Assembly: GCA_021463195.1 (NCBI GenBank)
Contig: JAJTXZ010000014.1
Span: 1 to 64,000 of the forward strand
Source of the DNA: Anaerolineae bacterium
GTDB taxonomy: Bacteria > Chloroflexota > Anaerolineae > UBA4142 > SHND01
Length of the DNA: 64,000 nucleotides
Direction of reading: 5' to 3'
Of this stretch, positions 43,174-64,000 are shown piece after piece. The translations under genes and the position numbers were made by a program. Each line of letters starts with the position of its first letter. Within the stretch, counting starts at the first letter, position 1. The notes beneath the pieces were generated by a model. The model was not told the DNA's origin. It made no database searches and worked only from the letters and a program-made list of their open reading frames with translations.

Positions 43174-43720
43174 CATCAAACCTACGCAATGCCAAATTTC
43201 CGCAATTCCCGATTTGCCAGGCGAAAGCAATTTTGCAGGATGGCTGAATCAGCAAGCGGCGCAATATGCGTTGACTTTTGCGCTCGCGTTTGCGGATGAC
43301 GGCGTCATTTGGGGACGCTTTGACGGCGCGTGGAAATGGTCGGACGAGAGTTTCGCTGTCTCGCCGCCGCTGCGCTGGAACACCTTGCAACAGATTCGCT
43401 TGTTTGGCGCGAACGCCGAAGTGTTTCTGTGGCGCGCAAATGGCGCATGGGCAGGACGCGTGATTGCAGATGGCGCGGGCGAGCCGCGCGAATACTTTGA
43501 TGAGGCACAATTGCTGTGGGGCGCGAAAGATGGTGATGCACAAAACGGTTTCTTGCTGATGCGCGACGGCGGACAAGGCCTGCGCCACACGCCGCCGGTC
43601 AATATTGCGAATGAGGGCAAATTGTGCACGCGCAATTATCTGGACTATGACCAAGATGGGAGTATGAAAATTATTGCCAGCCGCTTGGTGGACGCCAAGT
43701 CGGAGGAGATGACGAAATGA
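43166..43720 (+). CDS. csx19: Csx19-like protein
   Basis: 184 aa. Conserved-looking parts are LTFALAFADDGVIWGRFDGA, WNTLQQIRLFGANAEVFLWR and ANGAWAGRVIADG, near the middle of the protein, which match the Csx19 family of subtype III-D loci. Its biochemical role is not known; it may be a small subunit of the complex. An AAAGGAG ribosome site lies before the ATG, and both ends overlap neighbours. Confidence 0.82.
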   Translation: MRDIKPTQCQISAIPDLPGESNFAGWLNQQAAQYALTFALAFADDGVIWGRFDGAWKWSDESFAVSPPLRWNTLQQIRLFGANAEVFLWRANGAWAGRVIADGAGEPREYFDEAQLLWGAKDGDAQNGFLLMRDGGQGLRHTPPVNIANEGKLCTRNYLDYDQDGSMKIIASRLVDAKSEEMTK

Positions 43721-46080: not shown

Positions 46081-46196
46081 TTGGCGCACGGGCCGGGTTG
46101 TCAACGGATTTTAAAAACGGATGAACGGATGAGGCGCGCGCTGTTCGCGAATCCGCTGGCAATCCGCAAAATGATTTGTTCTGGAAAAGGAGTGCG

Positions 46197-47084
46197 ATGA
46201 CAACGTTAATTTCCTTGGTGGGCGATCAACCTGCGCCAAACGTTATCCCAGTGCGCCATTTTGCGCCAAAACAGGTTGCGCTTATTCATACAAAACTAAC
46301 GCAAAGACGCGCTGAATATATTGCCGATGTGCTTGGCAAAAGCGTCGTGCATCCTTTTTGCCAGACGGAAGCGTATCGTGTGGATTCTATCAAAGCGTCG
46401 TTGAGTGAATATATCGAACGGCATGGCTGGAATTCCGATGCACTGATTTTCAATCTCACGGGCGGCACCAAGACAATGGCGATTGCGGCGCTTGAATTGG
46501 CGCAGCAAATGGGGGCGGCGGCGTTTTATTATCAGACCGAAGAGAACCAGAGTCTGCTCCATGTCTATCATTTTGACGGAGCGCAGTTGATTTGCCAAGA
46601 GCCGATACCAATTAGGGCGACTCTGACGATAGATGAGTTCTTGCGTCTTTATATCGGACGGTACGAGAAGGGCGAGTTCAAAAATGATTTTGAACGAAAC
46701 GTCGCTGCGGCGCTCGAGCAGTTGGGCGCTGACTATGAATCTTGTCCGAATCTCAGACTAACCGGTGTCGGTCCGAATGTGGAAATAGATGGGGTCGTGC
46801 GTTTTCATAACACGATTGGTGTGATTGAGGTTTGTGTCCATGCGACTAAAAAGGACGGGATAGACCAGTTGGCAGGCGTAACTGACCAAAAGACATTGGG
46901 GACATACACAAAAAAGTTCCTCGTTTCAGTAGACGAGTTGCACGCAAACGACCAAGCGCTTGCTACAGCATATCGAATCATTCCCATCGTGCTGCCAAGT
47001 GGCCGCGGACAGACACTGGCGCAAGCGGATAAACAAAAATTGATTGAAACTTTGAGAGCCGAGATGGAGCCGAGAAAAGAATGA
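46197..47084 (+). CDS. CARF-domain nuclease-like effector, second copy (Card1/Can2-type, DUF1887)
   Basis: 295 aa from the ATG at 46197 (AAAAGGAG ribosome site). The CARF part covers 1-140 with LISLVGDQPAPNVIPVRHFA and LIFNLTGGTKTMAIAALELA (GGTK at 89-92). The nuclease part has FKNDFERNVAAALEQLGADY, VGPNVEIDGVVRFHNTIGVI and EVCVHATKKDGIDQLAGVTD: the Asp (D198) and Glu (E211) of PD-(D/E)xK are kept but the Lys two places on is Cys213; K218/K219 may substitute. It is likely a cyclic-oligoadenylate-activated nuclease. It is smaller than the copy at 36807. Confidence 0.83.
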   Translation: MTTLISLVGDQPAPNVIPVRHFAPKQVALIHTKLTQRRAEYIADVLGKSVVHPFCQTEAYRVDSIKASLSEYIERHGWNSDALIFNLTGGTKTMAIAALELAQQMGAAAFYYQTEENQSLLHVYHFDGAQLICQEPIPIRATLTIDEFLRLYIGRYEKGEFKNDFERNVAAALEQLGADYESCPNLRLTGVGPNVEIDGVVRFHNTIGVIEVCVHATKKDGIDQLAGVTDQKTLGTYTKKFLVSVDELHANDQALATAYRIIPIVLPSGRGQTLAQADKQKLIETLRAEMEPRKE

Positions 47085-47461
47085 TCCTCCTCAACTACTC
47101 CCACCCCCTCACCCCCGCGCAGCTCGCGCAAGTCGAGGCGTTGGCAGGGAAAAAAATCGAGCGCGTGGTCGAGGTTCACAGCCAGATTGACGCGCAGGCG
47201 CCGCTCACGCCGCAAGTGGTGGCGATGGCGGACAAGGCGGGGCTTGAACCAATCGAATGGCAGTCCGCGCCGCTCATCGTGAATCCGCCATCGTTGAATT
47301 TTGTCGCGACAGTGTTGTTGGCGGAATTGCATGGGCGCTGCGGTTATTTTCCGGCGATGCTGCGGATGCGCCCGGCGCCGAATAGTTTGCCGCCGCAGTT
47401 TGAAGCGGCAGAGATTATCAATTTGCAGGCGACGCGCGATGCGGCGCGCCTCGTGCGGTGA
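47081..47461 (+). CDS. csx15: Csx15-like CRISPR-associated protein (putative ring nuclease)
   Basis: 126 aa. The sequence MILLNYSHPLTPAQLAQVEA, PLTPQVVAMADKAGLEPIEW, SAPLIVNPPSLNFVATVLLA, ELHGRCGYFPAMLRMRP and EIINLQATRDAARLVR matches the Csx15 family, which is grouped with CARF-related proteins that may degrade cyclic oligoadenylate and switch off the response. It overlaps the CARF nuclease stop (ATGA), so effector and off-switch would be made together. Activity is inferred, not shown. Confidence 0.78.
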   Translation: MILLNYSHPLTPAQLAQVEALAGKKIERVVEVHSQIDAQAPLTPQVVAMADKAGLEPIEWQSAPLIVNPPSLNFVATVLLAELHGRCGYFPAMLRMRPAPNSLPPQFEAAEIINLQATRDAARLVR

Positions 47462-47560
47462 GGGAGCGCGGTCAACGGATCGGCGGTCAACGGATAGGGA
47501 AAACGGATGAACGGATGCGCGCGGTCAACGGATTTGAAACGGATAATCGAATGAACGCGC
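47462..47560 (+). repeat. GGTCAACGGAT / ACGGATGAACGGATG tandem tract
   Basis: Repeated imperfect units such as CGGTCAACGGAT (three copies) and ACGGATGAACGGATGCGCG fill the boundary between the type III and type I blocks. A related shorter tract is at 46098-46130. Confidence 0.75.
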
Positions 47561-47599
47561 GCGCATCTGGAACAATACTTTCCAACCGCCGGCTATTCT

Positions 47600-47626
47600 G
47601 TGAATGGAGATTTTTATTTCATTCAC
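47600..47626. promoter_or_regulatory. GTGAATG-N13-CATTCAC dyad next to the ribosome site
   Basis: The right arm ends one base before the GGAGG ribosome site of the small HTH gene at 47638. It parallels the stem at 34416-34450 in front of the first small HTH gene, though the bases differ. Confidence 0.5.
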
Positions 47627-47637
47627 GGAGGCAGCCG

Positions 47638-47847
47638 ATGGCACGCTTATTCTGGGGCGAAAAGAAATGCAAGCGCGGAGACGTGGTGCGCCTTTTGAAA
47701 CGTTTTGAGCAAGGATTGACAGAGAGCGAGGTCGCGGAAATTTTGGCGTGGGACCGCCGCACGGTCAATAATTATTTGCGCGAGCTCGAAGTGGAATTGC
47801 GCGTCTACAAGGAAGGACGGCTCTGGTTCGCCGATGAAGGCGTTTGA
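47638..47847 (+). CDS. Small stand-alone HTH protein, first gene of the type I block
   Basis: 69 aa from the ATG at 47638 (GGAGG ribosome site); the frame is open upstream only through the simple repeat. The HTH is KKCKRGDVVRLLKRFEQGLT, ESEVAEILAWDRRTVNNYLR, ELEVELRVYKEGRLWFADEG. It resembles the HTH of the WYL protein encoded next (RTLNNYLRALEDEGKVYKDS), so it may have split off from such a regulator. It has no ligand domain. Confidence 0.72.
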   Translation: MARLFWGEKKCKRGDVVRLLKRFEQGLTESEVAEILAWDRRTVNNYLRELEVELRVYKEGRLWFADEGV

Positions 47848-47924
47848 AAAAAATTTTGCCCGCGTTGGCACGCGCGGCGCGCTAATTTTCCAACTGCTCG
47901 CTATACTGACAAGTAGGAGGCAGT

Positions 47925-48968
47925 ATGGCTAAAGTGGATGCCGATACGATTGAACGCAGCCGCGAGCGCGTTTTTTTGACGCTGCGCCAATATCCAAATG
48001 GACTGGCGGAAGCGGAATTGGAACAGCTGACGCAGATTCAACGGCGCACGTTGAACAATTATCTGCGCGCGCTGGAGGACGAAGGCAAGGTATACAAAGA
48101 CAGCATCTATTGGTTCGCGCTGCCGTACGATGAGTTGCGACTGCGGCATTTTGAATTGTCGCCGGAAGAGGCGATGACGCTGTATCTGGCGACGCGGCTT
48201 TTGGCAAAAAATCACGACAAGCGCAATGAACCGGCGGAAACGGCGTTGATGAAACTCGCTGCCGCGCTGACGACGAAATCTATCGCGGGCAGAGAAATTC
48301 ACCAAGCCGCGCAGGAATTGGCGGAACGCCCCAAGCAAGCAGAGTACGACCAAATTTTTCGCGCGGTGATGCAAGCGTACATTTATCGCCACGTTCTGCA
48401 CATCACCTACGAACCGCTCAAAGGCAAAGCGTTCGAGACCGATTTTGCGCCGTATCTCATTGAGCCGTCGGCGATTGGGATGACGACGTACATCATTGGA
48501 CAAAGCAGCATCGTCAACGCGATTCGGACCTATAAATTGGAACGCATCCGCGCCGCCGCGTTGACGCGTCAGGAATACACGGTTCCGCGCGAATTTCGCG
48601 GACTCGATTTGTTGAAAAGCGCGTGGTCGGTGATTTATGGCGCGGAGTTGGTGACGGTGATTTTGCGATTCGGTCCTCAAGTGCGGAAACGCGTTTTGGA
48701 AACGCGCTGGCATTTTTCGGAACAAAAGGATGATGATCCCGATAACCCCGATTACTTGCTGTGGCAAGCGCAAGTGGCGGATACAACGGACATGCTGCCA
48801 TGGATTCGCGGGTGGGGAAGTGATGTGGAGGTGGTGGAGCCGCGCGTCTTGCGCGAGACGATGATGGGTGAGGCGAAGGCGCTGGCGGAAAAATACGCGT
48901 GGCATGTGTCTTTTAAACCATCGGGCAAAATGAACTCGACGCTCGACGATTTTTTTGGAAACAACTAA
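47925..48968 (+). CDS. WYL-domain transcriptional regulator of the type I block
   Basis: 347 aa. HTH (SRERVFLTLRQYPNGLAEAE, IQRRTLNNYLRALEDEGKVY), a helical middle (LSPEEAMTLYLATRLLAKNH), WYL barrel (YRHVLHITYEPLKGKAFETD, FAPYLIEPSAIGMTTYIIGQ, IRTYKLERIRAAALT) and a WCX end (VTVILRFGPQVRKRV). The same layout as the WYL protein at 34751, with divergent sequence. A TATACT box (47902-47907) and GGAGG site precede it. cas3 begins 3 bases after its stop, so it is co-transcribed with the type I genes and probably controls them. Confidence 0.9.
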   Translation: MAKVDADTIERSRERVFLTLRQYPNGLAEAELEQLTQIQRRTLNNYLRALEDEGKVYKDSIYWFALPYDELRLRHFELSPEEAMTLYLATRLLAKNHDKRNEPAETALMKLAAALTTKSIAGREIHQAAQELAERPKQAEYDQIFRAVMQAYIYRHVLHITYEPLKGKAFETDFAPYLIEPSAIGMTTYIIGQSSIVNAIRTYKLERIRAAALTRQEYTVPREFRGLDLLKSAWSVIYGAELVTVILRFGPQVRKRVLETRWHFSEQKDDDPDNPDYLLWQAQVADTTDMLPWIRGWGSDVEVVEPRVLRETMMGEAKALAEKYAWHVSFKPSGKMNSTLDDFFGNN

Positions 48969-48970
48969 CC

Positions 48971-51379
48971 ATGAGCTTGTATCCATTTCAAACGCGCGTC
49001 AAAGAATTGATTCAACGCGGCGCATCGGTGATTTTGCAAGCGCCGACGGGCGCGGGCAAAACGCGCGCCGCGCTCGCGCCGTTTATTGAAAATTTTTTCG
49101 ATTTCCCCACCGCGCCCTTGCCGCGCAAATGTTTGTACGTCGTGCCGATGCGCGTGCTGGCAAATCAATTTGTAGAGGAATACAAAGGATACGCTGATTC
49201 GTACAAACGGATTCATCGCCGCGAGCTCAAGGTTTCAATTCAGACGGGCGAACAGCCGCTCGACCGCCGTTTTGAAAATGATTTGACGTTCTGCACGGTG
49301 GACCAATTCTTGAGCAGCTATTTGACGATGCCGTACAGCTTGCCGCACCGTCTCGCCAATCTCAACGCGGGCGCGCTGATTGGCACGTTTTTGATTTTTG
49401 ACGAATTTCATCTGCTCGACCCGACGACGACACTGCCGACGGTGTTACACGCCTTGAAAGAATTTCGCGGACTCGCGCCGATGCTGTTGATGACGGCAAC
49501 GTTCAGCCGCGAAATGTTGGACGCGTTGGCGAATGAGTTGGGCGCGCAGGTCGAGCATGTTTCGCAAGACGAATGGCGGACAATTCAAACGCGCGATGAC
49601 AAGACGCCGCGCGAACGAACGTGGCGCGTGGAAGAAGCGGAATTGTCGGCGGAACAGGTGATTGCTTCACATCAAACGCGCAGCATTGCGATTTGCAATA
49701 CAGTGCGGCGCGCGCAAAATTTGTTTCGGGATTTGAAACGCGCCCAGCGCGAAGGCAAACTCGACGCGGAACTGTTGTTATTGCACAGCCGCTTTTTGCA
49801 AACGGACCGTCAGACGCGCGAAAAAGAACTGAAAGAATGGTTCGGCAAAGACGCGGCGCGCGCGGGAAGCAAAATTCTTGTCGCGACGCAGGCGATTGAA
49901 GTGGGCGTGGATATTACGTCGGAGGTTTTACATACCGAACTCGCGCCCGCGAGTTCGATGATTCAACGCGCGGGGCGCTGCGCGCGTTATGCGGGCGAAA
50001 CGGGAACGGTGCGCGTGTATCCCGTTTCCGATTACGCGCCCTATGGCAAGGAAAAGGATGATCCGGGCGATGAAGCGCCGTGGGTGGCGGAAATGCGCGC
50101 GGCGTTGGAGTGGCTGCGCGCGCATGACGGCGAGATTTTGGATTTTCATGCCGAGCAGGAATTGATCAATGCGGTTGCCGCGCCGCGCGACAAATTGATT
50201 TTGCAAGCGTTGTCCGCGAATCGGCACACGCACGCGGAACACATTCAACGCGTGTGGGTGAATGACCGTCAAGCGAGCGATGGACGTTTGCTCATTCGTG
50301 ACGCGGATAGCCGGCTCGTGTTGATTCATCCGAATCCCGATGAGTTGCTGCGAAATCCATTGGGCGCGACGGGATTCAGCGTGCCGACGCGCACGCTGTA
50401 CGGGATGGTTAAAGATTGGACGAGCCGCGCGACGGACGCGGATTGGCGCGTGAAATTGCTGCTTGAAGACAAGGCGATTGAAAAGAGCGACGAGGTGCGA
50501 AGCGAGTACGGGTGGAAAACGCTGCATGACGCCTCGCTGTTGTGGACGACGCGCGCGTTGGTGGTGAATCCCGAGCTTGCAAGTTATTTGAACGACGAAG
50601 GTTTTGTCTCGGAACAAGGCGGCGGCGAGTTTCAATCCGCGATTCCGGAAAAAGCCGCCGCGCAAACGTGGGACGATATTTCGTACAAGCTAGAAAGTTA
50701 TGAGCAGCATATTCGTTTGGTGTTGCAAGCGTTCGTGGAATTGGCGCTGCCGGAATTGGAATATCCGGCGCGCGCATTGGAGCAAAAAGCGAATTGGGAA
50801 AAAGGGAGCGTCGTGCGCGCGGCGTGGCTCTGCTGCTTGTTGCACGATGTCGGCAAGTTGAGCGAAGGGTGGCAGCGATGGGTGCGCGCGTATCAAAAAG
50901 AAATTGGTTCGCCGGTTGATAAAAATTACGCGGCGGCGCACACCGATTGGAATTCAAAGAATCCCGCGCACCGCGACGCGGACAAACGCGTTCGCAAACA
51001 TTCCCCCAAACCGCCGCACGCGACGCAAAGCGTTTTTGCGACGGACAAAATGTTGGTGCAAGCGTTCGGCGTTGAAAAGGAATTGTTGATACGCGCGATG
51101 TGGACGGCGATTGCGCGGCATCACGCGCCGTTCACGCAGGAATGTGAAGCGTTCACGCTCGAAGCGCAAGCGGCGGAACATCTGCGCGCGACGTTTGATT
51201 TTGTGCCGAGTGAGATGCGAAAAAATTTGGAATTGAAAATACTCAAGTACAAGTTGACGAGCAAGCAGGATGTGATGTTGGTGCGCCCGGATGAACCGGA
51301 TGGTTGGCTCGCGTATTGGCTGCTCGTGCGCGCGCTGCGGCGGGCGGACCAGCGCGGGACGGAGATGGGAAGTAGATAG
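48971..51379 (+). CDS. cas3: Cas3 with helicase first and HD nuclease at the C-terminus
   Basis: 802 aa. The helicase (about 1-420) has Walker A QAPTGAGKTRAALAPF, DEFH in FLIFDEFHLLDP, LLMTATFSREMLDAL, VATQAIEVGVDITSEVL and SSMIQRAGRCARYAGETGTV. The HD part (about 610-790) has WLCCLLHDVGKLSEGWQRWV, AAHTDWNSKNPAHRDADKRV and IRAMWTAIARHHAPF. In most type I systems HD comes first; here the order is reversed. It unwinds and shreds DNA marked by Cascade. Confidence 0.92.
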   Translation: MSLYPFQTRVKELIQRGASVILQAPTGAGKTRAALAPFIENFFDFPTAPLPRKCLYVVPMRVLANQFVEEYKGYADSYKRIHRRELKVSIQTGEQPLDRRFENDLTFCTVDQFLSSYLTMPYSLPHRLANLNAGALIGTFLIFDEFHLLDPTTTLPTVLHALKEFRGLAPMLLMTATFSREMLDALANELGAQVEHVSQDEWRTIQTRDDKTPRERTWRVEEAELSAEQVIASHQTRSIAICNTVRRAQNLFRDLKRAQREGKLDAELLLLHSRFLQTDRQTREKELKEWFGKDAARAGSKILVATQAIEVGVDITSEVLHTELAPASSMIQRAGRCARYAGETGTVRVYPVSDYAPYGKEKDDPGDEAPWVAEMRAALEWLRAHDGEILDFHAEQELINAVAAPRDKLILQALSANRHTHAEHIQRVWVNDRQASDGRLLIRDADSRLVLIHPNPDELLRNPLGATGFSVPTRTLYGMVKDWTSRATDADWRVKLLLEDKAIEKSDEVRSEYGWKTLHDASLLWTTRALVVNPELASYLNDEGFVSEQGGGEFQSAIPEKAAAQTWDDISYKLESYEQHIRLVLQAFVELALPELEYPARALEQKANWEKGSVVRAAWLCCLLHDVGKLSEGWQRWVRAYQKEIGSPVDKNYAAAHTDWNSKNPAHRDADKRVRKHSPKPPHATQSVFATDKMLVQAFGVEKELLIRAMWTAIARHHAPFTQECEAFTLEAQAAEHLRATFDFVPSEMRKNLELKILKYKLTSKQDVMLVRPDEPDGWLAYWLLVRALRRADQRGTEMGSR

Positions 51380-51557: not shown

Positions 51558-51806
51558 ATGTTCGGTTTCGCGCGAATCATAGTTCAATCAAACGCAATTG
51601 GCGTAAGATTTGAACAGGTCGGTCATCGTCAAAAGTTCAATGCAGTTATGGTACGCTTTAATCGCTCCTTTCCACTCAAGGAATGGGATTACAGCAAACG
51701 TCTATGGCTGCTACCTGCTGGTGACTTGAACGCCGTGATTTCATTCTGCTCTCAAACATTCGGCGTTGCTGGCTATCAAATCGAACGGGAGCTTATCACA
51801 GCATAA
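51558..51806 (+). CDS. 82-aa protein of unknown function between cas3 and cas8
   Basis: Starts MFGFARIIVQSNAIGVRFEQ, continues FNAVMVRFNRSFPLKEWDYS, KRLWLLPAGDLNAVISFCSQ and TFGVAGYQIERELITA. The pattern of a hydrophobic strand, a basic/aromatic WD-KRLW-P turn and a helix recalls the short HARP-like modules of SNF2 helicases, only as an impression. A strong AAGGAGG ribosome site and a good promoter support real expression. Composition differs from the cas genes around it, so it may have been inserted. It could be a small Cascade subunit, an anti-CRISPR or an unrelated gene. Confidence 0.6.
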   Translation: MFGFARIIVQSNAIGVRFEQVGHRQKFNAVMVRFNRSFPLKEWDYSKRLWLLPAGDLNAVISFCSQTFGVAGYQIERELITA

Positions 51807-51849
51807 GTTCTCTGTCAATCAAGAACTAATTTTCATCGAAAGGAGGGCT

Positions 51850-53691
51850 ATGTACCAAGCCGAGTATTTTATTGACAAATCGTCCAACACGTTTGCGGAT
51901 AATCTCGCGGCGTTCGGTTTGGCGTTTGTGTTGAATGGCATCGCCGATGGGCGCGCGAAAATTTTTGTTGAGGACAATGGCGCGGCGTTCGTCGTGCGCG
52001 TCACGCCCGCGCTGCGCGAGGAATGGGTCGCGCAATGCAAATTTTTCGCGGGCGCGCAATTTCTGGTGACGCTGGACCGCAAGAGTGAAACCAAGATGGT
52101 GAAAGGGACAAAACTCAAACCCGCGTTGGCGTTGGGCGCGATTGATTATGAAAACGAAAAGGGCAATAATCGCCAATTTTTTGATTGGATGAAAGCGCTG
52201 CCGCCGGAGCAGAAAAAACTTGCGGCGCGCGGCGAACTCGACCCGCCCGCGCGCCCGCACGAATTTTGGGATGTGTTTCGCGCGATTAATCCGGGCGCGC
52301 TGCAAGGATACAACGGACTGCTGGCGGAATGGCAGCAAGGGCGCGACGCGTTTCCCGAACTGTTACGCGTGGTTTTGCAAATGACGGCGCAAACGCCAAA
52401 TGATGTCGAGGGCGCGGAAAATGAATGGGAGAAAATTTGCAAGGCGCGCGGTTTGGAAAAACCGAAAGCGCCAAAAGCGCTGCAGCTGTGGAATCCCGCG
52501 CAAGGCAAAGGCGTGAACAGCCGCATCGCGCGTTGGAGCAATCCGAACAATGTGCCCGCGTCGTGGCTCTTGGAATGGCTCAAGGTGGTGGGTTTTTATC
52601 AAGCGGCGATTACGCGCATTGTCGCGAATCCGAGCGACCCGCGCAACGCCAAAGACCGCAAGACCTACGTGCTGCATCCGCAATTCTTGGAATGGGGCGC
52701 GCATCAGACGGTGATGAAAGATTTTCGGCAAGCGATGGTGGGCAGCGCGACGGCGATTAAACTCGATGTGCTTGCGACGCTGCGCTACACGCGCGCGTTC
52801 CTCAAACATTTTGAAGAGGCAAAAGGCGACGCTCAAGCGTTTTTGTTTGGCAAGCGTCCGAGCGATTTGGTGAGCGGCATGGAAACGGCGTTCTACAAAA
52901 GTTTGGGGCAATCGCCGGCGGTGATGAACATTGCGAGCATCAATTTGCCGCGCTGGGTAAATCCGCAAGCGGCGGAATTGGCGCTGCTGGATGCGGCGTT
53001 GGACGAGCATACGGCGATTGTGCGCGGGTTGGACGAAACGCGCGGCGAGCAGTTTGGTTTGTTGGGACACTATCGCGATTTTCTTTCGGGAAATGATTTG
53101 AATCCGTTTTTTGAATTTACGACGGCGTACAGCGGATTCATTATTAGCCAACGCGAACGGAAAAAATATGTGCGTCAGTTTACGACAAATAATTTGGAGG
53201 TGATGATTGTGAACAGTGATACACCGCAGAAAACGTATGCGACGATTCTGCAAGATGAGGGTTTCAAAAATGTGGCGTACGCGATTCGACACAGTACCGT
53301 CATTCCGCAAGGGCGCAAAGCGAAGGGCAAGAAACCGGTGGTGGATATTCGCTACGGGCTGGGGCAGCAGTTGGCGCGCAAGGCGAATTATCCCGACGAA
53401 TTTCTGGCGGAGATCGCCGCGTTTTTGCAAGCGTACAACGCGGAAAATTCGCAGCTGCGCGAGAACAAGCGCGAGCCGTTTCGCAAGAATGTGACGACGC
53501 AGGACATTGAAGCGCTTGCGGCGTTGATTGATGAATACGGCGCCAAGACGGTTTGCAATCTGCTCATCGCGTACGGCTATGCCAAGACGCCCTACGAAAA
53601 GGGGGATGAGGAAAAGGACGCGGATGATTTGGAAATGGCGGATACGTCCGATGGGGCGGAGAGTGAAGCGGAAGGCGCAGAGGAAGAATAG
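51850..53691 (+). CDS. cas8: Cas8-like large subunit of the type I complex (subtype unassigned)
   Basis: 613 aa from the ATG at 51850, chosen for its AGGAGGG ribosome site; the open frame extends upstream without family character. It starts MYQAEYFIDKSSNTFADNLA, and is helix-rich with few motifs I recognise; identification rests on size and the cas3-X-cas7-cas5-cas6 order. Segments such as NPGALQGYNGLLAEWQQGRD and QQLARKANYPDEFLAEIAAF may be diagnostic on search. An acidic tail (last ~25 residues) is unusual. It should recognise the PAM. The order Cas8-Cas7-Cas5 is like the devTRS/Myxan arrangement. Confidence 0.72.
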   Translation: MYQAEYFIDKSSNTFADNLAAFGLAFVLNGIADGRAKIFVEDNGAAFVVRVTPALREEWVAQCKFFAGAQFLVTLDRKSETKMVKGTKLKPALALGAIDYENEKGNNRQFFDWMKALPPEQKKLAARGELDPPARPHEFWDVFRAINPGALQGYNGLLAEWQQGRDAFPELLRVVLQMTAQTPNDVEGAENEWEKICKARGLEKPKAPKALQLWNPAQGKGVNSRIARWSNPNNVPASWLLEWLKVVGFYQAAITRIVANPSDPRNAKDRKTYVLHPQFLEWGAHQTVMKDFRQAMVGSATAIKLDVLATLRYTRAFLKHFEEAKGDAQAFLFGKRPSDLVSGMETAFYKSLGQSPAVMNIASINLPRWVNPQAAELALLDAALDEHTAIVRGLDETRGEQFGLLGHYRDFLSGNDLNPFFEFTTAYSGFIISQRERKKYVRQFTTNNLEVMIVNSDTPQKTYATILQDEGFKNVAYAIRHSTVIPQGRKAKGKKPVVDIRYGLGQQLARKANYPDEFLAEIAAFLQAYNAENSQLRENKREPFRKNVTTQDIEALAALIDEYGAKTVCNLLIAYGYAKTPYEKGDEEKDADDLEMADTSDGAESEAEGAEEE

Positions 53692-53745
53692 ACGACTAAA
53701 GTCGTCACTATGAAACATTTTCAAGGAGCAAACAAAATGGCAAAC

Positions 53746-54741
53746 ACAAATTCAATCTATTCGCTTTCGATTTCGGCGCGCGCGATTTTTGATATGCACT
53801 CGCTGAACAATGAGGGCGGCGAAGGCAATCAGATTCAAACGCGGATGGTGAATATCATTGGCGCGGACAATCAAATGCACAATGTGAACGCGATTTCGGG
53901 CGATATGTTCAAACACATTCAAGCGGAACATTTGCATCGGCTCGCGGTGGAGGCGGGATTGCCGCTGTCGGAAGGGGCGCGGCAATTTAATGCGAACCGC
54001 GTGAATTATGATATTCAGGCAAAGAATGAATTGCTCAAGGCGCTCGACGACGCGAACGGTGACGCGGCAGAGTTGGATGTGATTTTGCAGCGCTGCGCGG
54101 TGACGGATATGGAAGGGATTTTGGTGACGGCGGGCAATCGTTCTTTGCCGCGCAAGAGCGTGGTGGAGTTTGGCTGGGTGGTCGGCGTGCCGGGCAGCGT
54201 AGAGACGGACAGTTATTTTCATGTCAAGTACGCGTCGGACCGCAGCGAAAAGGCGCGCACGCAAGCCGAGTCGGAAGAATCGCGCGGCGCGAATGTGGGG
54301 CAGGCGATTTTTCATCGTCCCGCGTCGTCGGGGATTTACGCGATTGTGTTGAATGTAGAAGCGGCGCGCATCGGGTTTAATGATTTGGCGCAGCGGTACG
54401 CGATTGATGAAGCGGCGCGCGCGGCGCGGTTAAAAGTTTTGCTGGAAAGTGTTTTGCATACGTTCATCGAACCGGCGGGCGCGATGCGGAGTACGCAGAA
54501 TCCCCATGTGGTGGATGTGCGCGGGGTGATTACGGTGAGTCGCGCGGTGGCGCCTGCGCCGTGCATTTCGCCACTCAAGCCGGAGTTTGTGGGCGAGATT
54601 CAACAAATTGCGAGCGCGTTGAATTCACTGCGTCCGAACGCTATCGAGGTGATTCCATTTGATTCGGCGGGTGAGTTGGCAGAAAAGATGGCGGCGTTGA
54701 TTTCAAGCGCGACGCCGTTGACGTTGGCGTTCCACGCGTAA
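53746..54741 (+). CDS. cas7: Cas7, DevR/Csa2-type backbone subunit
   Basis: 331 aa from the ATG at 53746, which has an AAGGAG site; an ATG 36 bases upstream is less likely. SIYSLSISARAIFDMHSLNN, EGNQIQTRMVNIIGADNQMH, NVNAISGDMFKHIQAEHLHR are the typical N-terminus of DevR-type Cas7 (type I-A/I-B group). GANVGQAIFHRPASSGIYAI and RFNDLAQ-like segments continue. Several copies form the crRNA backbone of Cascade. Confidence 0.88.
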   Translation, partial: TNSIYSLSISARAIFDMHSLNNEGGEGNQIQTRMVNIIGADNQMHNVNAISGDMFKHIQAEHLHRLAVEAGLPLSEGARQFNANRVNYDIQAKNELLKALDDANGDAAELDVILQRCAVTDMEGILVTAGNRSLPRKSVVEFGWVVGVPGSVETDSYFHVKYASDRSEKARTQAESEESRGANVGQAIFHRPASSGIYAIVLNVEAARIGFNDLAQRYAIDEAARAARLKVLLESVLHTFIEPAGAMRSTQNPHVVDVRGVITVSRAVAPAPCISPLKPEFVGEIQQIASALNSLRPNAIEVIPFDSAGELAEKMAALISSATPLTLAFHA

Positions 54742-55536: not shown

Positions 55537-56577
55537 ATGTTTTCACTTGCTACCACCCATCTGCGTTTTGTGTGCGAGGCGACGACGCCTTTGCGATTGG
55601 AGGCGGATATTTTTCGCGCGGGAAGTAATTTGCGCGGGGCGTTGGGACAGGTGATGCTGCGTTCGTATTGCGCGCATCCGCATCAAGACCCCAAAGGTTC
55701 TTTGGCGCGCGCGGCAGGACAAGACGAACGCGGTGAAAACCTTTGGGGTCTTTGCCCCGTCCATTGGCTGCTGGCGGCGAATGAAAAGCCGGGCGAAGAA
55801 CGACGCGGCTATGCGCTGGTGCCGCCTTTGCCGAATGATGGCGCAGAGTGTTTGAATCGCGGGGACGCGTTCGAGTTTGGGATTACGTTGTTTGGCAGCG
55901 CGCGGAAATTTTTGCCGTACTTTATTCTGGCGGCGCCGGAGATGGGGCGCGCGGGGATTGGCCCGGGGCGCGGGAAATTTGAATTGAAACGGGTGTGGGC
56001 GTTGAATCCGCTGACGGGGGAGAGTGAGATTTTATTTGGTGATTCAGGAAATTTGGTGCGGGCGCCGACGGTGGGGGTGAATCATGAAATGGTGATGCGG
56101 AATGCGGAATGCAGAATGCGGAATCGGGAGACTGGAGATTGGAGACTGGAGATTGATTTTCTGACGCCGACGCGGTTGATCGAAGCGGACAGGTTAGCGC
56201 AGGCGCCTGAATTCGCTGTGCTGTTTGCGCGCTTGCTCAAGCGGTTGGACGATTTGAATGGGCAGTTTGGCGATGGTTCGAGACGCGGTGGCGAAGCGGC
56301 AATGGCGCTGCAGCGTGTGGCGGAGCAAGTCAGGTTGGTGGAATCGCACACGCGTTGGGTGGAGGTATGGAGTGGTTCGACGCGCCGCGGGCAGTCGTCG
56401 CCGTTGAGTGGGATTGTAGGATTTGGACGATATGAAGCTGCCGTTGGGGTGTGGCGCGAACTTTTGCCGTGGCTGTTGTGGGGGGAATTGGCGCAGGTGG
56501 GGAAGGCGGCGGTAAAGGGGAATGGGGTGATGCGAATCAAGGATGAAGAGGTGATTGGTGATTGGGTGATTGGGTGA
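55537..56577 (+). CDS. cas6: Cas6 pre-crRNA endoribonuclease carrying repeat insertions
   Basis: 346 aa. N-terminal ferredoxin-like part: LRLEADIFRAGSNLRGALGQ and VMLRSYCAHP. C-terminal part: SPLSGIVGFGRYEAAVGVWR, LLPWLLWGELAQVGKAAVKG with the glycine-rich loop NGVMRI, as in Cas6. It would cut each 37-nt repeat to leave an 8-nt ACTGAAAG handle. Two internal regions look like inserted repeats: 55685-55752 (an inverted repeat, coding for QDPKGSLARAAGQDERGENL) and 56096-56156 (simple repeats, coding for RNAECRMRNRETGDWRLE). The C-terminal end also runs into a GTGATTGG tract. No ribosome site is visible. Confidence 0.82.
   Translation: MFSLATTHLRFVCEATTPLRLEADIFRAGSNLRGALGQVMLRSYCAHPHQDPKGSLARAAGQDERGENLWGLCPVHWLLAANEKPGEERRGYALVPPLPNDGAECLNRGDAFEFGITLFGSARKFLPYFILAAPEMGRAGIGPGRGKFELKRVWALNPLTGESEILFGDSGNLVRAPTVGVNHEMVMRNAECRMRNRETGDWRLEIDFLTPTRLIEADRLAQAPEFAVLFARLLKRLDDLNGQFGDGSRRGGEAAMALQRVAEQVRLVESHTRWVEVWSGSTRRGQSSPLSGIVGFGRYEAAVGVWRELLPWLLWGELAQVGKAAVKGNGVMRIKDEEVIGDWVIG
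55685..55752. repeat. Inverted repeat inside the cas6 coding sequence
   Basis: AAGACCCCAAAGGTT (55685-55699) pairs with AACCTTTGGGGTCTT (55738-55752). The arms resemble those of the palindromes at 19817-19868 and 22630-22665 (GACCCCAAGGGTT). The reading frame is kept through it. Confidence 0.8.
56096..56156 (+). repeat. Simple-repeat tract in frame inside cas6
   Basis: Copies of GCGGAAT/GCAGAAT (56098-56123), then GGAGACTGGAGATT units (56128-56156), the same unit as the intergenic tracts at 7487 and 57714. Confidence 0.85.
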
Positions 56578-56600
56578 TTGGGTGATTGCGATTTGCGATT
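56553..56600 (+). repeat. GGTGATTGGGTGATT tract at the cas6-cas1 junction
   Basis: Four near-copies of GTGATTGG encode the last Cas6 residues (EEVIGDWVIG) and continue past its stop. Confidence 0.8.
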
Positions 56601-56641
56601 CGTTATCTGCTATCAGCCATCTGCTATCAGCGAGGTGTAAC

Positions 56642-57712
56642 ATGCCTATCATACAAAATTTAATCGTGGAAGAGTTCGGGGCGTTTGTGAGCAAGCACAG
56701 CGAGCGTTTGATTGTGAGCAAGGGGGATGAGAAATTGATTCAGGCGCCGCTGCTGCATTTGGAGACGGTGCTGATTGCGAGTAGGGGAGTCGCGATTAGT
56801 TCGGACGCGGTGCGGGAGTGCGCGGAGCGGGGGATTCCGATTCATTTTGTGAGTGGTTCGGGGAACGCGTATGCGAGCATGTACAGTTCGGGCTTGACGG
56901 GAACGGTGTTGACGCGGCGCGCGCAGTTGGCGGCGTTTCATACATTGCGCGGGCTGTTTTTGCCGATTGCGTTCGCGCAGGGGAAATTGTCGAATCAGGC
57001 GAACTTTTTGAAGTATATGTCGAAATATCGCAAGGAGAGCGCGCCGGAGATTTTTGAAATTTTGCGCGCGGCGGCGGAAAAAATTTTGGAAACGGTGAAT
57101 GATTTAGAGACGCTGAAAACGCTGCCAGAGGTGTTGTCGGGGGAACGGGCGACGATTGATGATTGGCGTTTTGAGTTGTTGGGGATGGAGGGGCGCGCGG
57201 CGCAGACGTATTGGGAGGCGTTGAAACGCGCGCTGCCGCAAGAATTGGAATGGCAGGGGCGCGAGGGACGCGGCGCGCGTGACCCGATCAATGCGGCGTT
57301 GAATTATTGTTATGGGATTTTGTACGGGCAGATTGAACGCGCGCTGGTGTTGGCGGGTTTGGATCCGTATGCGGGGTTCGCGCATGTGGATCGTCCGGGG
57401 AAACCGAGTTTGACGTTTGATGCGATTGAGGAATTTCGCGCGCCGATTGTGGACCGAACGATTTTTGGTTTGGCGAACAAGGGGGTAAAGTTTGAACAGG
57501 ACGAGCGCGGGTATTTGACGGAGGGGACGCGCAAGATGCTGGCGGAGAAATTTTTTGAACGGATGGAAGCGACGGAATCATATGCAGTAGGGGACACTGC
57601 TGCAAAGAAAAGTTTTCCGCTGCGATTGATTGCGCAGATGCAGGCGCGGCATGTGGCGACGTTTTTGCGCGGGGAACGGGAAGAGTACGCGCCGTTTGTG
57701 ATGGGGTGGTGA
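56642..57712 (+). CDS. cas1: Cas1 integrase
   Basis: 356 aa from MPIIQNLIVEEFGAFVSKHS, preceded by GAGGTG. The catalytic set of the family is present: Glu in LLGMEGRAAQTYWEAL, His in YAGFAHVDRPGKPSL and acidic residues in FDAIEEFRAPIVDRTIFG. The N-terminal beta part (VLIASRGVAISSDAVRECAE, GIPIHFVSGSGNAYASMYSS) is standard. With Cas2 it integrates spacers at the leader end of the array. Confidence 0.96.
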   Translation: MPIIQNLIVEEFGAFVSKHSERLIVSKGDEKLIQAPLLHLETVLIASRGVAISSDAVRECAERGIPIHFVSGSGNAYASMYSSGLTGTVLTRRAQLAAFHTLRGLFLPIAFAQGKLSNQANFLKYMSKYRKESAPEIFEILRAAAEKILETVNDLETLKTLPEVLSGERATIDDWRFELLGMEGRAAQTYWEALKRALPQELEWQGREGRGARDPINAALNYCYGILYGQIERALVLAGLDPYAGFAHVDRPGKPSLTFDAIEEFRAPIVDRTIFGLANKGVKFEQDERGYLTEGTRKMLAEKFFERMEATESYAVGDTAAKKSFPLRLIAQMQARHVATFLRGEREEYAPFVMGW

Positions 57713-57786: not shown

Positions 57787-58062
57787 ATGCAGTGCGTGTT
57801 GGTGTACGATATTCCTGATGATGGGAAACGGGGCAAGGTGGCGGATGCGTGTTTGGATTATGGGATGGACCGCATTCAATATTCGGCGTTCTTGGGAAAT
57901 TTGGCGGTGACGCATCAGGAAGAATTGATGTTACGCATCAAACGAGTGTTGGGCAAGCACGCGGGGAATGTGCAGTTGTTTCCGATTTGTGAAAGGGATT
58001 GGGCGGCGCGGCAGTGTTTGGTGATAGAAGCAGCGAAAGAGGTGAAAGAGGATGTTGGATGA
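57787..58062 (+). CDS. cas2: Cas2
   Basis: 91 aa, the usual size. MQCVLVYDIPDDGKRGKVAD has the conserved Asp of the ferredoxin-like fold at the end of strand 1; YGMDRIQYSAFLGNLAVTHQ and NVQLFPICERDWAARQCLVI follow. It bridges two Cas1 dimers. Its end overlaps cas4 by 11 bases. Confidence 0.95.
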   Translation: MQCVLVYDIPDDGKRGKVADACLDYGMDRIQYSAFLGNLAVTHQEELMLRIKRVLGKHAGNVQLFPICERDWAARQCLVIEAAKEVKEDVG

Positions 58063-58648
58063 TGACATGGATTATCCGGTGCGGGTGACGGATTTGAAAC
58101 AATTTGTGTATTGTCCGCGCGTGTATTTTTATCAGGTGTGTTTGCCGAAAATTCGTCCGGTGACATTCAAGATGGAGGAAGGCGCGCGCGCGGGACAAAG
58201 CGAGGTGGGACGCGAGGAACGGCGTTCGCTGCGCGCGTATGGAATTAAAGAAGGGGCGCGCGAATTTGATGTGCCAGTCCGTTCGAAACGATTGGGGGTG
58301 CGCGGGGAAATTGATATGGTAGTTACGGTGGCGGAGACGGGCGAGGTGATTCCGGTAGATTACAAGATGTCGAAAATCGCGGGGATTCATTTTCAGATGC
58401 AGGTGACGGTGTATGGGATGATGCTGGAAGAGATGCGCGGGGTAAAGGTGACGCGCGGTTTTTTGTATGAGATTCCGCTGAAACGGGCGGAGGAGGTGGA
58501 GATTGATATGCGGATGCGGTTGCGGGCGGAAAAGGCGTTTCGGGAGATGCGGGAGATTTTGGAGCAGGAGCGAATGCCGCCGCCGGCGCGGAACGTGGCG
58601 AAATGTGTGACGTGCGAGTTTCGGCGATTTTGTAATGATGTGGTGTAG
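58052..58648 (+). CDS. cas4: Cas4 RecB-like nuclease with Fe-S cluster
   Basis: 198 aa. Cluster cysteines: one in LKQFVYCPRVYFY and three in VAKCVTCEFRRFCNDVV. The RecB nuclease motifs are RGEIDMVVTV and VIPVDYKMSK. Cas4 trims prespacers and selects those with a PAM. Its overlap with cas2 suggests the three adaptation proteins are made together. Confidence 0.95.
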   Translation: MLDDDMDYPVRVTDLKQFVYCPRVYFYQVCLPKIRPVTFKMEEGARAGQSEVGREERRSLRAYGIKEGAREFDVPVRSKRLGVRGEIDMVVTVAETGEVIPVDYKMSKIAGIHFQMQVTVYGMMLEEMRGVKVTRGFLYEIPLKRAEEVEIDMRMRLRAEKAFREMREILEQERMPPPARNVAKCVTCEFRRFCNDVV

Positions 58649-58887
58649 TGCAGCAGTGCGCTGGCGCAATGGTGCGGTAGTGGGGGCAGGGGTCAGGAGT
58701 CAGGGGTTGGCGGTCAGGGAGCCGGGATTTTCGCAAATGAGGGGCGATTTGGAGCAAAAATAGAGTTGCGAGTGAGTGTGCGCGAGAGTGGGGAGGAATA
58801 ACATGAATAAGATGAATATAACCGCAAAAATGGCGCGAAATGATTCAGAATTGCGTCATTTTGGGCATTTTTGGTGAAGCGCGATGC
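58649..58887 (+). promoter_or_regulatory. CRISPR leader
   Basis: About 240 bases between cas4 and the first repeat with no gene. The last 90 bases (from 58795) become A/T-rich. It lies on the side at which duplicated spacers share their fixed end, which fits the leader being here. No convincing -35/-10 pair was found by eye; AATATAACC near 58812 is a weak -10 candidate. Confidence 0.6.
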
Positions 58888-61800
58888 GTTGCAGTTCGTT
58901 CGTTCCGATAGAGGAAACTGAAAGTGTGGTTTCGCAAACTGCTTGTCAAAAAAGTTTTTATTGTTGCAGTTCGTTCGTTCCGATAGAGGAAACTGAAAGC
59001 CGAACGTTTCATTGCCGATGCCTGTTTCGGAGTTTGCGTTGCAGTTCGTTCGTTCCGATAGAGGAAACTGAAAGTGATATACTAACTTTGCTACCGAATA
59101 CGATGCGTGAGTTGCAGTTCGTTCGTTCCGATAGAGGAAACTGAAAGGTTTATTGTTCGCGGCGGTGGGCGGTGGTCTTGCGGCAGTTGCAGTTCGTTCG
59201 TTCCGATAGAGGAAACTGAAAGGCGCCTCCGGCGGACACATATTCGTTCGGGTCCGGTTGTTGCAGTTCGTTCGTTCCGATAGAGGAAACTGAAAGTTGC
59301 AGTTTGGTTTTGGCGTTTTTGCTCGGTTGTAGTTGCAGTTCGTTCGTTCCGATAGAGGAAACTGAAAGTCAAAACATTCTCGACCAGAAATCGGCACGCT
59401 TCAATGTTGCAGTTCGTTCGTTCCGATAGAGGAAACTGAAAGTGGGTGAAATCGTTTGCGTTGACGTTGGCGTTGCCGTGTTGCAGTTCGTTCGTTCCGA
59501 TAGAGGAAACTGAAAGAATGCTTTGGCTTGCTCGCGTTCGCAGCAGATTGTCCGGTTGCAGTTCGTTCGTTCCGATAGAGGAAACTGAAAGCAGCGAATG
59601 CGCGCCGCGCCCGATGCAAGCGCACGGCAGTTGCAGTTCGTTCGTTCCGATAGAGGAAACTGAAAGAGATTGAATTTCATGCGTCGCTTGACCGGGTGAG
59701 CCGTTGCAGTTCGTTCGTTCCGATAGAGGAAACTGAAAGACGCGCTCGCGCAAAGGACATGCGCCGCGAACTGTTGGTTGCAGTTCGTTCGTTCCGATAG
59801 AGGAAACTGAAAGATTCAATCACGCGCGGCGTTTGCGCGATGCGCGCAAAGTTGCAGTTCGTTCGTTCCGATAGAGGAAACTGAAAGCGAAAGGTGGGAA
59901 AAATGAACAGTGCGGTCAAAACGGTTGCAGTTCGTTCGTTCCGATAGAGGAAACTGAAAGCGTTTTCAGAACGCGCAGAATGTTTTTTCGTCAACGTAGT
60001 TGCAGTTCGTTCGTTCCGATAGAGGAAACTGAAAGACAATACGCGCGTTGCGCCCGAACGAAACGAATACTGGTTGCAGTTCGTTCGTTCCGATAGAGGA
60101 AACTGAAAGCGCGTTTCGGCTATTCCTTTACACTCACCTTTACGCGTTGCAGTTCGTTCGTTCCGATAGAGGAAACTGAAAGATCAATCGCACGCAGCCG
60201 AAACCGCGCGGGCGCTCGAGTTGCAGTTCGTTCGTTCCGATAGAGGAAACTGAAAGGCAAATCGGTTTCAAGACGCGCGACGTCTTGCGAAGTTGCAGTT
60301 CGTTCGTTCCGATAGAGGAAACTGAAAGGTTCGCCGCCCACGTCGCGCTGTTCGTACTCGAAATGCGTTGCAGTTCGTTCGTTCCGATAGAGGAAACTGA
60401 AAGACGGCGAGGTAATTCGTCTGGAATGGTCGCAGGTGGTTGCAGTTCGTTCGTTCCGATAGAGGAAACTGAAAGGCGATACAGCGAATGTACGAACTCG
60501 CAAAAATCATGGTGTTGCAGTTCGTTCGTTCCGATAGAGGAAACTGAAAGTTTCACGACGCAAGAATTTTTGCTCAAGGTCGAGCAGCGTTGCAGTTCGT
60601 TCGTTCCGATAGAGGAAACTGAAAGGCTTTGATGAAATTCTCTAGCATCCAAATTACATCTTGTTGCAGTTCGTTCGTTCCGATAGAGGAAACTGAAAGC
60701 GTTTTCAGAACGCGCAGAATGTTTTTTCGTCAACGTATGTTGCAGTTCGTTCGTTCCGATAGAGGAAACTGAAAGTCTGGTTTGGAGTAAACACGCGGCG
60801 GCGTCCATTGCGTTGCAGTTCGTTCGTTCCGATAGAGGAAACTGAAAGCGTTTCGGTTCTCTAAGGCGGTTTCCTCTATTTCACGTTGCAGTTCGTTCGT
60901 TCCGATAGAGGAAACTGAAAGGCCGCGTCGCGTCATAAATCTGGACGTACTGATAAATGTTGCAGTTCGTTCGTTCCGATAGAGGAAACTGAAAGTGCAA
61001 GAGCAATAGACCGCGCGGCGCGCGCGCGCCGAGTTGCAGTTCGTTCGTTCCGATAGAGGAAACTGAAAGCGCGCTCGCGAAAGTCAAATTCGATACGCGC
61101 TTCGGGTTGCAGTTCGTTCGTTCCGATAGAGGAAACTGAAAGTCAAAAATTCGCAAACGGCGATTATTGCAATTACAGTTGCAGTTCGTTCGTTCCGATA
61201 GAGGAAACTGAAAGGCTTTGATGAAATTCTCTAGCATCCAAATTACATCTTCGTTGCAGTTCGTTCGTTCCGATAGAGGAAACTGAAAGACGACGCGGAC
61301 ACATGCGCGCCGGTTGGCGCGGTCAAGTTGCAGTTCGTTCGTTCCGATAGAGGAAACTGAAAGACGCGCGCGGGCATCGGCGCACCTGCTACATAATTTG
61401 TTGCAGTTCGTTCGTTCCGATAGAGGAAACTGAAAGCGTTTTCAGAACGCGCAGAATGTTTTTTCGTCAACGTGTTGCAGTTCGTTCGTTCCGATAGAGG
61501 AAACTGAAAGGTATCAGCAATACCCGGCGACGGACACCGAAGCGTTGTTGCAGTTCGTTCGTTCCGATAGAGGAAACTGAAAGGCGCGAACGTCACGCGC
61601 ACGAGCGCGCGGCGGACGTGTTGCAGTTCGTTCGTTCCGATAGAGGAAACTGAAAGATTTGTTTCAAAATGGCTTGCTCATCCTGCTTGACGTTGCAGTT
61701 CGTTCGTTCCGATAGAGGAAACTGAAAGGTTGCTTTTGCGTGTCGCGCTTTTTGTCGGCGAGCATAGTTGCAGTTCGTTCGTTCCGATAGAGGAAACTGA

Positions 61801-64000
61801 AAGCGATTTTGTGTCAAAATCTTTCGGCAGTTGCGACAGGTTGCAGTTCGTTCGTTCCGATAGAGGAAACTGAAAGATCCAAATATGCCCGCCAGCCCGC
61901 GCCATCGTCCGCGCGTTGCAGTTCGTTCGTTCCGATAGAGGAAACTGAAAGCCGGTCCGCGCTCGCAGCCATCCCCGAAACTTTTGCGTTGCAGTTCGTT
62001 CGTTCCGATAGAGGAAACTGAAAGGCACGGTAATCGGCGAGCGCGCGCGCAGTTTCCCTGGTTGCAGTTCGTTCGTTCCGATAGAGGAAACTGAAAGTTT
62101 CATCGCGACTTTGCGCGACTTTGCGCGACTTTGCGTTGCAGTTCGTTCGTTCCGATAGAGGAAACTGAAAGCGTGCTTGATTGCGGCGCGCTGGTCGGGT
62201 GTGATGGGGTTGCAGTTCGTTCGTTCCGATAGAGGAAACTGAAAGCGCATCGTTGTGCTGAATTCATTCCAAAATTCGGGGTTGCAGTTCGTTCGTTCCG
62301 ATAGAGGAAACTGAAAGTTGAAAAAAATTGCGCTGCGGGTCTGCGTGTTGCAGCGTTGCAGTTCGTTCGTTCCGATAGAGGAAACTGAAAGTTCAACGCG
62401 TCAGTAATGAGCATGGACTCGGCATGCGTTGCAGTTCGTTCGTTCCGATAGAGGAAACTGAAAGGAGGTGTACATCATCGGTGCTGTCATGACGAAACGG
62501 GTTGCAGTTCGTTCGTTCCGATAGAGGAAACTGAAAGCGCGTCGGTGGGGGAACGCGCCACGGCACGCCAGAGAGTTGCAGTTCGTTCGTTCCGATAGAG
62601 GAAACTGAAAGCGCAGGCGTGGGATGCGCTCGTGGAATTCTTTCTCGGTTGCAGTTCGTTCGTTCCGATAGAGGAAACTGAAAGTAAAAGCCGCGCCAAA
62701 TCACACGACTTGAAAAGATGTTGCAGTTCGTTCGTTCCGATAGAGGAAACTGAAAGTTGCGCGTTCTATTTAGCGTCGAAACGCGCAAGCGAGTTGCAGT
62801 TCGTTCGTTCCGATAGAGGAAACTGAAAGACTTGACAAAAATCGAGATAGTTGCTATACTGTATTGTTGCAGTTCGTTCGTTCCGATAGAGGAAACTGAA
62901 AGGCGGCGAAGTGACAATCGGGGTCGTGCGCCCGTTGTGTTGCAGTTCGTTCGTTCCGATAGAGGAAACTGAAAGACCTAAGCGGAACGCGCGGCAGGTA
63001 CGAGGTGGCGGGGTTGCAGTTCGTTCGTTCCGATAGAGGAAACTGAAAGACGCGCGCCTTATGTAACCGCGTCGCGCTCACGTTTCGTTGCAGTTCGTTC
63101 GTTCCGATAGAGGAAACTGAAAGCGCTCGCCGAGTCTGCGCTCGCGCACGGCGCGGAACTCGTTGCAGTTCGTTCGTTCCGATAGAGGAAACTGAAAGTT
63201 CTGCGCGTAGGTGATCGCTTGCGCTTGGGCAAGCGTTGCAGTTCGTTCGTTCCGATAGAGGAAACTGAAAGAGTTGGCGCGCTTTCAATATCACGAGCAG
63301 CGAATTGGGTTGCAGTTCGTTCGTTCCGATAGAGGAAACTGAAAGTTTGGTTTGACCGCTTTCAACGTTACATGCTTCTTGGCGTTGCAGTTCGTTCGTT
63401 CCGATAGAGGAAACTGAAAGTCAAATCCGAGTCGCCTGCCGCGCAGCGCGCGGGGGCGTTGCAGTTCGTTCGTTCCGATAGAGGAAACTGAAAGTCATCA
63501 TGCGCGTCAATGCGCGATTTTCCTGATTTGGTGTTGCAGTTCGTTCGTTCCGATAGAGGAAACTGAAAGATGGTGATTCTTTCATCGTAGCGGATTCCGC
63601 GACCAAGTTGCAGTTCGTTCGTTCCGATAGAGGAAACTGAAAGTTAACGCGGTTTTGGCATATCTTAATTGTATCATGGTTGCAGTTCGTTCGTTCCGAT
63701 AGAGGAAACTGAAAGATGTCGCTTGTCGGCGGTTCATTAAGATAAACCGCAGTTGCAGTTCGTTCGTTCCGATAGAGGAAACTGAAAGTTGGCGCGGACA
63801 AAGCGGACGCGGGCGCGAGCGGCTGTTGCAGTTCGTTCGTTCCGATAGAGGAAACTGAAAGATGGCTTGTCTGCGGACAAGCGCGGGGAATAGAACAGTT
63901 GCAGTTCGTTCGTTCCGATAGAGGAAACTGAAAGAGCAAATCTATATTCGACGCAAAGGTGAAAGCGATTAGTTGCAGTTCGTTCGTTCCGATAGAGGAA
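58888..64000 (+). CRISPR. CRISPR array: 69 complete repeats and one partial, continuing beyond the window
   Basis: The 37-nt repeat starts GTTGCAGTTCGTTCGTTCCG and ends GATAGAGGAAACTGAAAG. Repeats start at 58888, 58963, 59038, 59111 and so on to 63898; the 70th (63972) is cut by the window edge. Period is 72-76, so spacers are 35-39 nt. Repeats look identical to the eye along the array with no decayed copy. The last 8 bases (ACTGAAAG) resemble the ATTGAAAG-type 5' handle, so transcription is to the right. Spacers at 59961, 60700 and 61437 are the same sequence, as are those at 60626 and 61215. Confidence 0.99.
62832..62860 (+). promoter_or_regulatory. Near-consensus promoter contained in a spacer
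   Basis: The spacer after repeat 55 (62866 is the next repeat) contains TTGACA, 17 bases, TATACT, in the same direction as the array. It matches 11 of 12 consensus bases with ideal spacing. Confidence 0.65.

What the first reader, a model, noticed from the sequence alone, without database searches (positions are those of the whole stretch)
59961..61473. Same targets sampled repeatedly: two spacers present three and two times with different lengths
The spacer starting CGTTTTCAGAACGCGCAGAA occurs at 59961 (38 nt), 60700 (39) and 61437 (37); GCTTTGATGAAATTCTCTAG occurs at 60626 (37) and 61215 (38). In each set the end after the repeat handle is fixed and the far end differs by one or two bases that fit one continuing protospacer. 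Neighbouring spacers differ, so block duplication is unlikely. The best explanation is independent capture from the same site, with the PAM side fixed and the other end trimmed loosely.
Basis: seen in the sequence. Interest (0 to 1): 0.7.

Follow-up and report, generated by a model that had tools for sequence, protein, structure and literature searches.

The report
Same phage sites captured repeatedly by CRISPR
A bacterium's CRISPR memory holds several spacers taken more than once from the same sites, each copy starting at the same base and ending one to three bases apart; this is the known behaviour of this kind of spacer capture, recorded here in an unusually long array.

Summary
The array runs past the window: 369 spacers in three contigs of an Anaerolineales MAG (DTUCFX3). 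Among these I find seven same-strand families of re-captured sites (9 pairs with a common start). All 9 share the handle-side end exactly; none has equal lengths. Neighbours never repeat. In 5 of 7 families the newer copy holds bases absent from the older copy plus repeat, excluding capture from the array. A targeted phage was found (IMGVR_UViG_3300024349_000273): 41 spacer matches against 0 in the reversed control, one exact, CCN before 28 of 41. So the fixed end is the PAM end. The cas genes are type I-A-like with Cas1, Cas2, Cas4. The exact protospacers of the two flagged spacers were not found.

The parts
58888..64000 (+). CRISPR array, 37-nt repeat, spacers 34-40 nt; runs off the window to the contig end (C46:73291) and most likely continues in contig C8 and ends in C3
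59961..59998 (+). spacer A15, family 1, 38 nt
60700..60738 (+). spacer A25, family 1, 39 nt
61437..61473 (+). spacer A35, family 1, 37 nt (oldest copy)
60626..60662 (+). spacer A24, family 2, 37 nt
61215..61252 (+). spacer A32, family 2, 38 nt
62392..62427 (+). spacer A48 (36 nt); partner A147 (39 nt, 2 substitutions) lies beyond the window
62757..62792 (+). spacer A53 (36 nt); partners B19 (38 nt) and B169 (shifted by 2, 1 mismatch) lie in contig C8
61070..61105 (+). spacer A30; 34/36 match to phage G396 at 31369
60922..60958 (+). spacer A28; exact 37/37 match to phage G396 at 32500, preceded by CCC
58649..58887 (+). leader region between cas4 and the first repeat; new spacers enter here
   Evidence: the far end carries the only variant repeats; leader role inferred
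58052..58648 (+). cas4 (198 aa)
   Evidence: TIGR00372 2e-34, PF01930
57787..58062 (+). cas2 (91 aa)
   Evidence: PF09827 6.7e-15
56570..57712 (+). cas1 (380 aa)
   Evidence: TIGR00287 6.5e-74, PF01867
55537..56577 (+). cas6 (346 aa)
   Evidence: PDLC01477 9.5e-58, PF10040
54752..55456 (+). cas5a (234 aa)
   Evidence: PDLC01390 6.8e-58
53710..54741 (+). cas7 / Csa2, DevR family (343 aa)
   Evidence: PF01905 1.3e-69, TIGR02583 1.1e-27, below its cut-off
51766..53691 (+). cas8a (641 aa)
   Evidence: PDLC01417 Cas8a 6.8e-64; no Pfam or NCBIfam match
48971..51379 (+). cas3, helicase then HD domain (802 aa)
   Evidence: TIGR01587 1.5e-51, TIGR01596 3.9e-14

Best explanation
These are independent captures of the same protospacers by a Cas1-Cas2-Cas4 adaptation module of a type I-A-like system. 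Cas1-Cas2 with Cas4 picks a fragment next to a CCN PAM; the PAM end is cut at a fixed place and becomes the spacer's first base after the repeat handle. The far (non-PAM) end is trimmed loosely, so repeated captures of one site start alike and end 1-3 bases apart. Copies of a site entered the array at separate times, with other spacers between them. Shown here: fixed 5' ends, variable 3' ends, no block duplication, CCN on the fixed side, cas1-cas2-cas4 present. Inferred from the literature: that Cas4 makes the exact cut and that host nucleases or Cas1 trim the other end.
For: All five copies verified. In 369 spacers, 7 same-strand families; all 9 pairs with a common start differ in length (37/38/39; 37/38; 36/38; 36/37; 34/37; 37/38; 36/39). 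If looseness were shared equally by both ends, identical starts in 8 independent comparisons would have a chance of about 2e-4 (rough model). Newer copies carry tails (AT and A; CAA; A) that do not occur in older copy plus repeat, or substitutions, in 5 of 7 families. 41 matches on phage G396 against 0 on the reversed sequence; CCN before 28 of 41, expected about 2.3 (p about 1e-25), and no motif on the other side. Cas1, Cas2, Cas4, Cas8a, Cas5a, Cas7, Cas6, Cas3. Same behaviour published for Sulfolobus type I-A (PMC3468723).
Against: The protospacers of the two flagged spacers were not found, so the continuation of the protospacer is inferred from nested copies. Family 2 and family 4 alone do not exclude capture from the array. 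Two placements of family members on diverged phage contigs (A82/A92; B5/B47) are near the noise level. B169 starts 2 bases off with one mismatch, an exception to the fixed start. A MAG assembly could have collapsed exact duplicates, which would bias the sample towards unequal lengths.
Confidence: 0.92

Rival explanations
1. Duplication or slippage within the array (recombination between repeats, or block copying) followed by small indels at the spacer-repeat border.
For: Repeats are nearly identical, so recombination is possible in principle. Family members are sometimes near each other.
Against: 0 of 9 pairs are of equal length and no neighbouring spacers repeat; the length changes are nested extensions of one sequence, and repeats at those borders are unchanged.
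Confidence: 0.03
2. The array itself was the source: an older spacer in the array DNA was re-captured.
For: Newer copy fits inside older copy plus next repeat for A32->A24, A92->A82, B19->A53 and A25->A15.
Against: A35->A25, A35->A15, B97->A126, B47->B5, B169->B19/A53 and A147->A48 do not fit. Inside the array the bases before a spacer are AAG, not CCN.
Confidence: 0.03
3. Assembly artefact: mis-joined or strain-mixed array reads in the MAG.
For: MAG in 143 contigs; the array is broken over C46, C8 and C3.
Against: Nested 1-2 base differences followed by intact repeats are not a typical assembly error; the pattern recurs in seven families and on two contigs.
Confidence: 0.03

Closest known systems
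Sulfolobus solfataricus P2 type I-A spacer uptake (Erdmann and Garrett 2012, PMC3468723; passages read)
   Same: CCN PAM; PAM-side ends homogeneous, far ends heterogeneous; lengths vary (36-43 there, 34-40 here); rare inverted spacers; an imprecise ruler measured from the PAM was proposed.
   Different: There seen across clones of an infected culture; here several captures of one site are stacked in one natural array of a bacterium.
SMV1-induced uptake from pMGB1 (PMC3839810; section 7 read)
   Same: Type I-A; 63 of 472 spacers were duplicates and single sites were strongly over-represented (hot sites).
   Different: Hot sites were shared between experiments; here recurrence is within one array.
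Clostridioides difficile type I-B adaptation (PMC8406132; passages read)
   Same: CCN PAM; new spacers 34-40 bp, average 36-37.
   Different: Different subtype; overexpressed Cas1-Cas2-Cas4.
Cas4-Cas1-Cas2 prespacer processing (PMC6519985, PMC10504553, PMC5815122; passages read)
   Same: Precise cut at the PAM by Cas4, non-PAM end trimmed separately and integrated at the leader side, which is the variable side here.
   Different: Biochemistry of types I-C, I-G and I-A; no enzyme was tested here.

Membership tests
Type I-A CRISPR-Cas | Cas8a large subunit | tested here: met
   PDLC01417 Cas8a 6.8e-64; no Pfam or NCBIfam hit
Type I-A CRISPR-Cas | Cas5a and Cas7/Csa2 | tested here: met
   PDLC01390 Cas5a 6.8e-58; DevR/Csa2 PF01905 1.3e-69; TIGR02583 matched below its curated cut-off
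Type I-A CRISPR-Cas | separate small subunit Csa5/Cas11a | tested here: inconclusive
   only a weak Cas11a match (7.6e-4) inside the Cas8a protein; not every ORF was scanned
Type I-A CRISPR-Cas | CCN PAM | tested here: met
   CCN before 28 of 41 phage matches; CCN also serves type I-B (PMC8406132)
Cas4-assisted adaptation with PAM end fixed and far end loose | cas1, cas2, cas4 next to the array | tested here: met
Cas4-assisted adaptation with PAM end fixed and far end loose | same-site captures share the PAM-side end and vary at the other | tested here: met
   9 of 9 pairs with a common start in 7 families; B169 is a 2-base exception
Cas4-assisted adaptation with PAM end fixed and far end loose | Cas4 itself makes the PAM-end cut | not testable with these tools
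   needs biochemistry or a cas4 knockout

The most novel reading that the evidence does not exclude
Having a perfect spacer against a site makes re-capture of that very site more likely for a while: interference by the existing crRNA cuts the target there and feeds the same PAM-anchored fragment back into adaptation, so memory is rewritten over itself within about ten acquisitions. The array would then record self-reinforcing hot sites, not uniform sampling.
Probability: 0.12. Interest if true: 0.6.

Novelty: new member of a known kind. Interest (0 to 1): 0.33.

Why it matters
Here seven families of same-site captures and a located phage give PAM, polarity and end-looseness for an uncultured Chloroflexota I-A-like system without an experiment, tie an IMG/VR phage to its host lineage, and suggest uneven, time-clustered sampling of sites.

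Tried and rejected
Exact cores of five families in IMG/VR: none. Whole array by megablast against phage and plasmid records: none. Flagged spacers with up to 3 mismatches in 396 genomes of the class: only the array itself. Placing the duplicate families on the phage contigs by DNA at 72% identity: none; by translation: B5/B47 on G005:C388 (score 45, best control 44) and A82/A92 on G005:C416 (scores 45 and 41, best control 46), kept only as weak leads. Relatives of the C388 protein (L069, L070, L083-L085) gave one spacer match (A189) in about 59 kb. Lesser similarities between spacers (B14/B74 16 bp, B99/B126 15 bp, all pairs of 11-14 bp) were dropped from the family counts as low complexity or chance. 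The idea that all repeats come from uniform sampling of one phage was tested: 100 spacers on 6007 CC sites give 0.8 repeat captures on average, 4 or more in 0.9% of runs, a triple in 0.4%; the test assumes one source, which is not known. A paper search for the isolate name found nothing.

Full report
Observation. The repeat occurs 369 times in the genome: 195 on contig C46 from 58888 to its end at 73291, 173 on contig C8 (12.8 kb, array throughout) and one on C3. C3 overlaps the end of C8 by 64 identical bases and holds the last, mutated repeat and the flank. C46 and C8 share only 17 bases of repeat at their ends, so that join is likely but not proven. Read as one array, with the repeat split at that join, this gives 370 repeats and 369 spacers. 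The genome is the MAG 'Anaerolineales bacterium isolate DTUCFX3' (by the record title of C8). The leader lies between cas4 and the first repeat, and the two variant repeats lie at the other end, so position 1 is newest (inference).

Families. Comparing all spacers (366; three edge spacers were added and were not in the pairwise comparison) shows seven same-strand families: A15/A25/A35 (38/39/37), A24/A32 (37/38), A53/B19 (36/38, with B169 shifted by two bases and one mismatch), A82/A92 (37/36), A126/B97 (37/34), B5/B47 (38/37), and A48/A147 (36/39 with two substitutions). One more pair, A177/B24, is the same site in opposite orientation with one boundary in common. All nine pairs with a common start share it exactly and none has equal length. 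Two random spacers have equal length in 26% of cases, so no equal pair in seven families has probability 0.06 under independent capture, which is compatible; copying would give equal lengths every time.

Source outside the array. Ordered by age, the newer copy cannot be cut out of the older copy plus the next repeat in family 1 (A35 to A25 and A15), family 3 (B169 to B19 and A53), A126/B97, B5/B47 and A48/A147; it can in A24/A32 and A82/A92, and for B19 to A53 and A25 to A15. No neighbour of a copy is repeated beside another copy.

PAM. Diverged protospacers were first found on contigs of a same-genus genome: C388 and C342 of G005 carry 11 and 9 matches of at least 72% identity against 0 and 1 on the reversed sequences. 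A protein of C342 led to IMG/VR phage IMGVR_UViG_3300024349_000273, 52.7 kb. On it 41 matches (40 spacers) are found against none on the reversed sequence; A28 matches 37 of 37. The three bases before the match are CCN in 28 of 41; the other 13 are not CCN, most of them at diverged sites, but A30 (34/36) also lacks it. The bases after the match show no motif. So the fixed spacer end is the PAM end. Other relatives: G005:C416 and C422 gave 6 and 5 matches, G076:C56 gave 2, G368:C230 gave 1, IMG/VR L103 and G321:C428 none.

Who cuts. PADLOC and other profiles give Cas3, Cas8a, Cas7, Cas5a, Cas6, Cas1, Cas2 and Cas4 in one run directly before the array: a type I-A-like system. Published work agrees in detail: CCN-side ends homogeneous and far ends heterogeneous in Sulfolobus I-A (PMC3468723), duplicates and hot sites (PMC3839810), precise Cas4 cut at the PAM and separate trimming of the non-PAM end (PMC6519985; PMC10504553; PMC5815122), positional inaccuracy of the far cut in type I-F (PMC5059440). 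Only passages or single sections of these papers were read.

What is left open. The two flagged spacers have no known source. Re-captures cluster: pair distances are 10, 20, 10, 8, 162, 10, 167, 42 and 99 array positions; as many pairs within 10 arise in 0.13% of permutations, or 0.8% when one distance per family is used. In the same stretch spacers A23, A28, A30, A36 and A38 match the phage G396, so a burst of uptake from a G396-like phage is a fair reading; the flagged spacers were not placed on it and are poorer in G+C (0.42 and 0.32 against a mean of 0.52), so another element is possible. Hot sites are known in type I-A; whether an existing spacer promotes its own re-capture is not decided by these data.

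Literature scope. Searches for same-site spacers of different length were in the open library only; the direct precedent came. A statement on the longest array (587 spacers, Haliangium ochraceum) is from one passage of PMC10076291.

Noticed in passing
window 58888 to end; L036, L037, L046: Very long array: 369 spacers in 370 nearly invariant repeats if the three contigs join.
   Followed up: yes
L095, L086, L096 (IMGVR_UViG_3300024349_000273): A phage matched by 40 spacers of this array, one exactly: a host assignment for an IMG/VR phage, with matches recurring from A1 to B168.
   Followed up: yes
G000:C62:29736-29774 (L066 7737): Spacer B172, near the old end, matches the own genome at 35/37 with CCG before it: a possible self-target.
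   Followed up: no
L065 (G000:C9) 2148 and 2294: A contig with an integrase-like ORF in the own genome carries diverged matches to spacers B73 (33/38) and B70 (28/35).
   Followed up: partly
window 62830-62865: Spacer A54 contains TTGACA, 17 bases, TATACT: a captured promoter-like sequence inside the array.
   Followed up: no
L036 and L037 (spacers A177 / B24): Same site in opposite orientation; B24's far end falls exactly on A177's handle-side end, as for an inverted insertion.
   Followed up: partly
window 43717-48968: A type III-D Cas7-like protein and a CARF-PDDEXK protein stand upstream of the I-A-like genes, with a WYL protein at 47925-48968.
   Followed up: partly
L041 (G004:C77 28-525): A same-genus genome holds a short array with a related but different repeat.
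   Followed up: no
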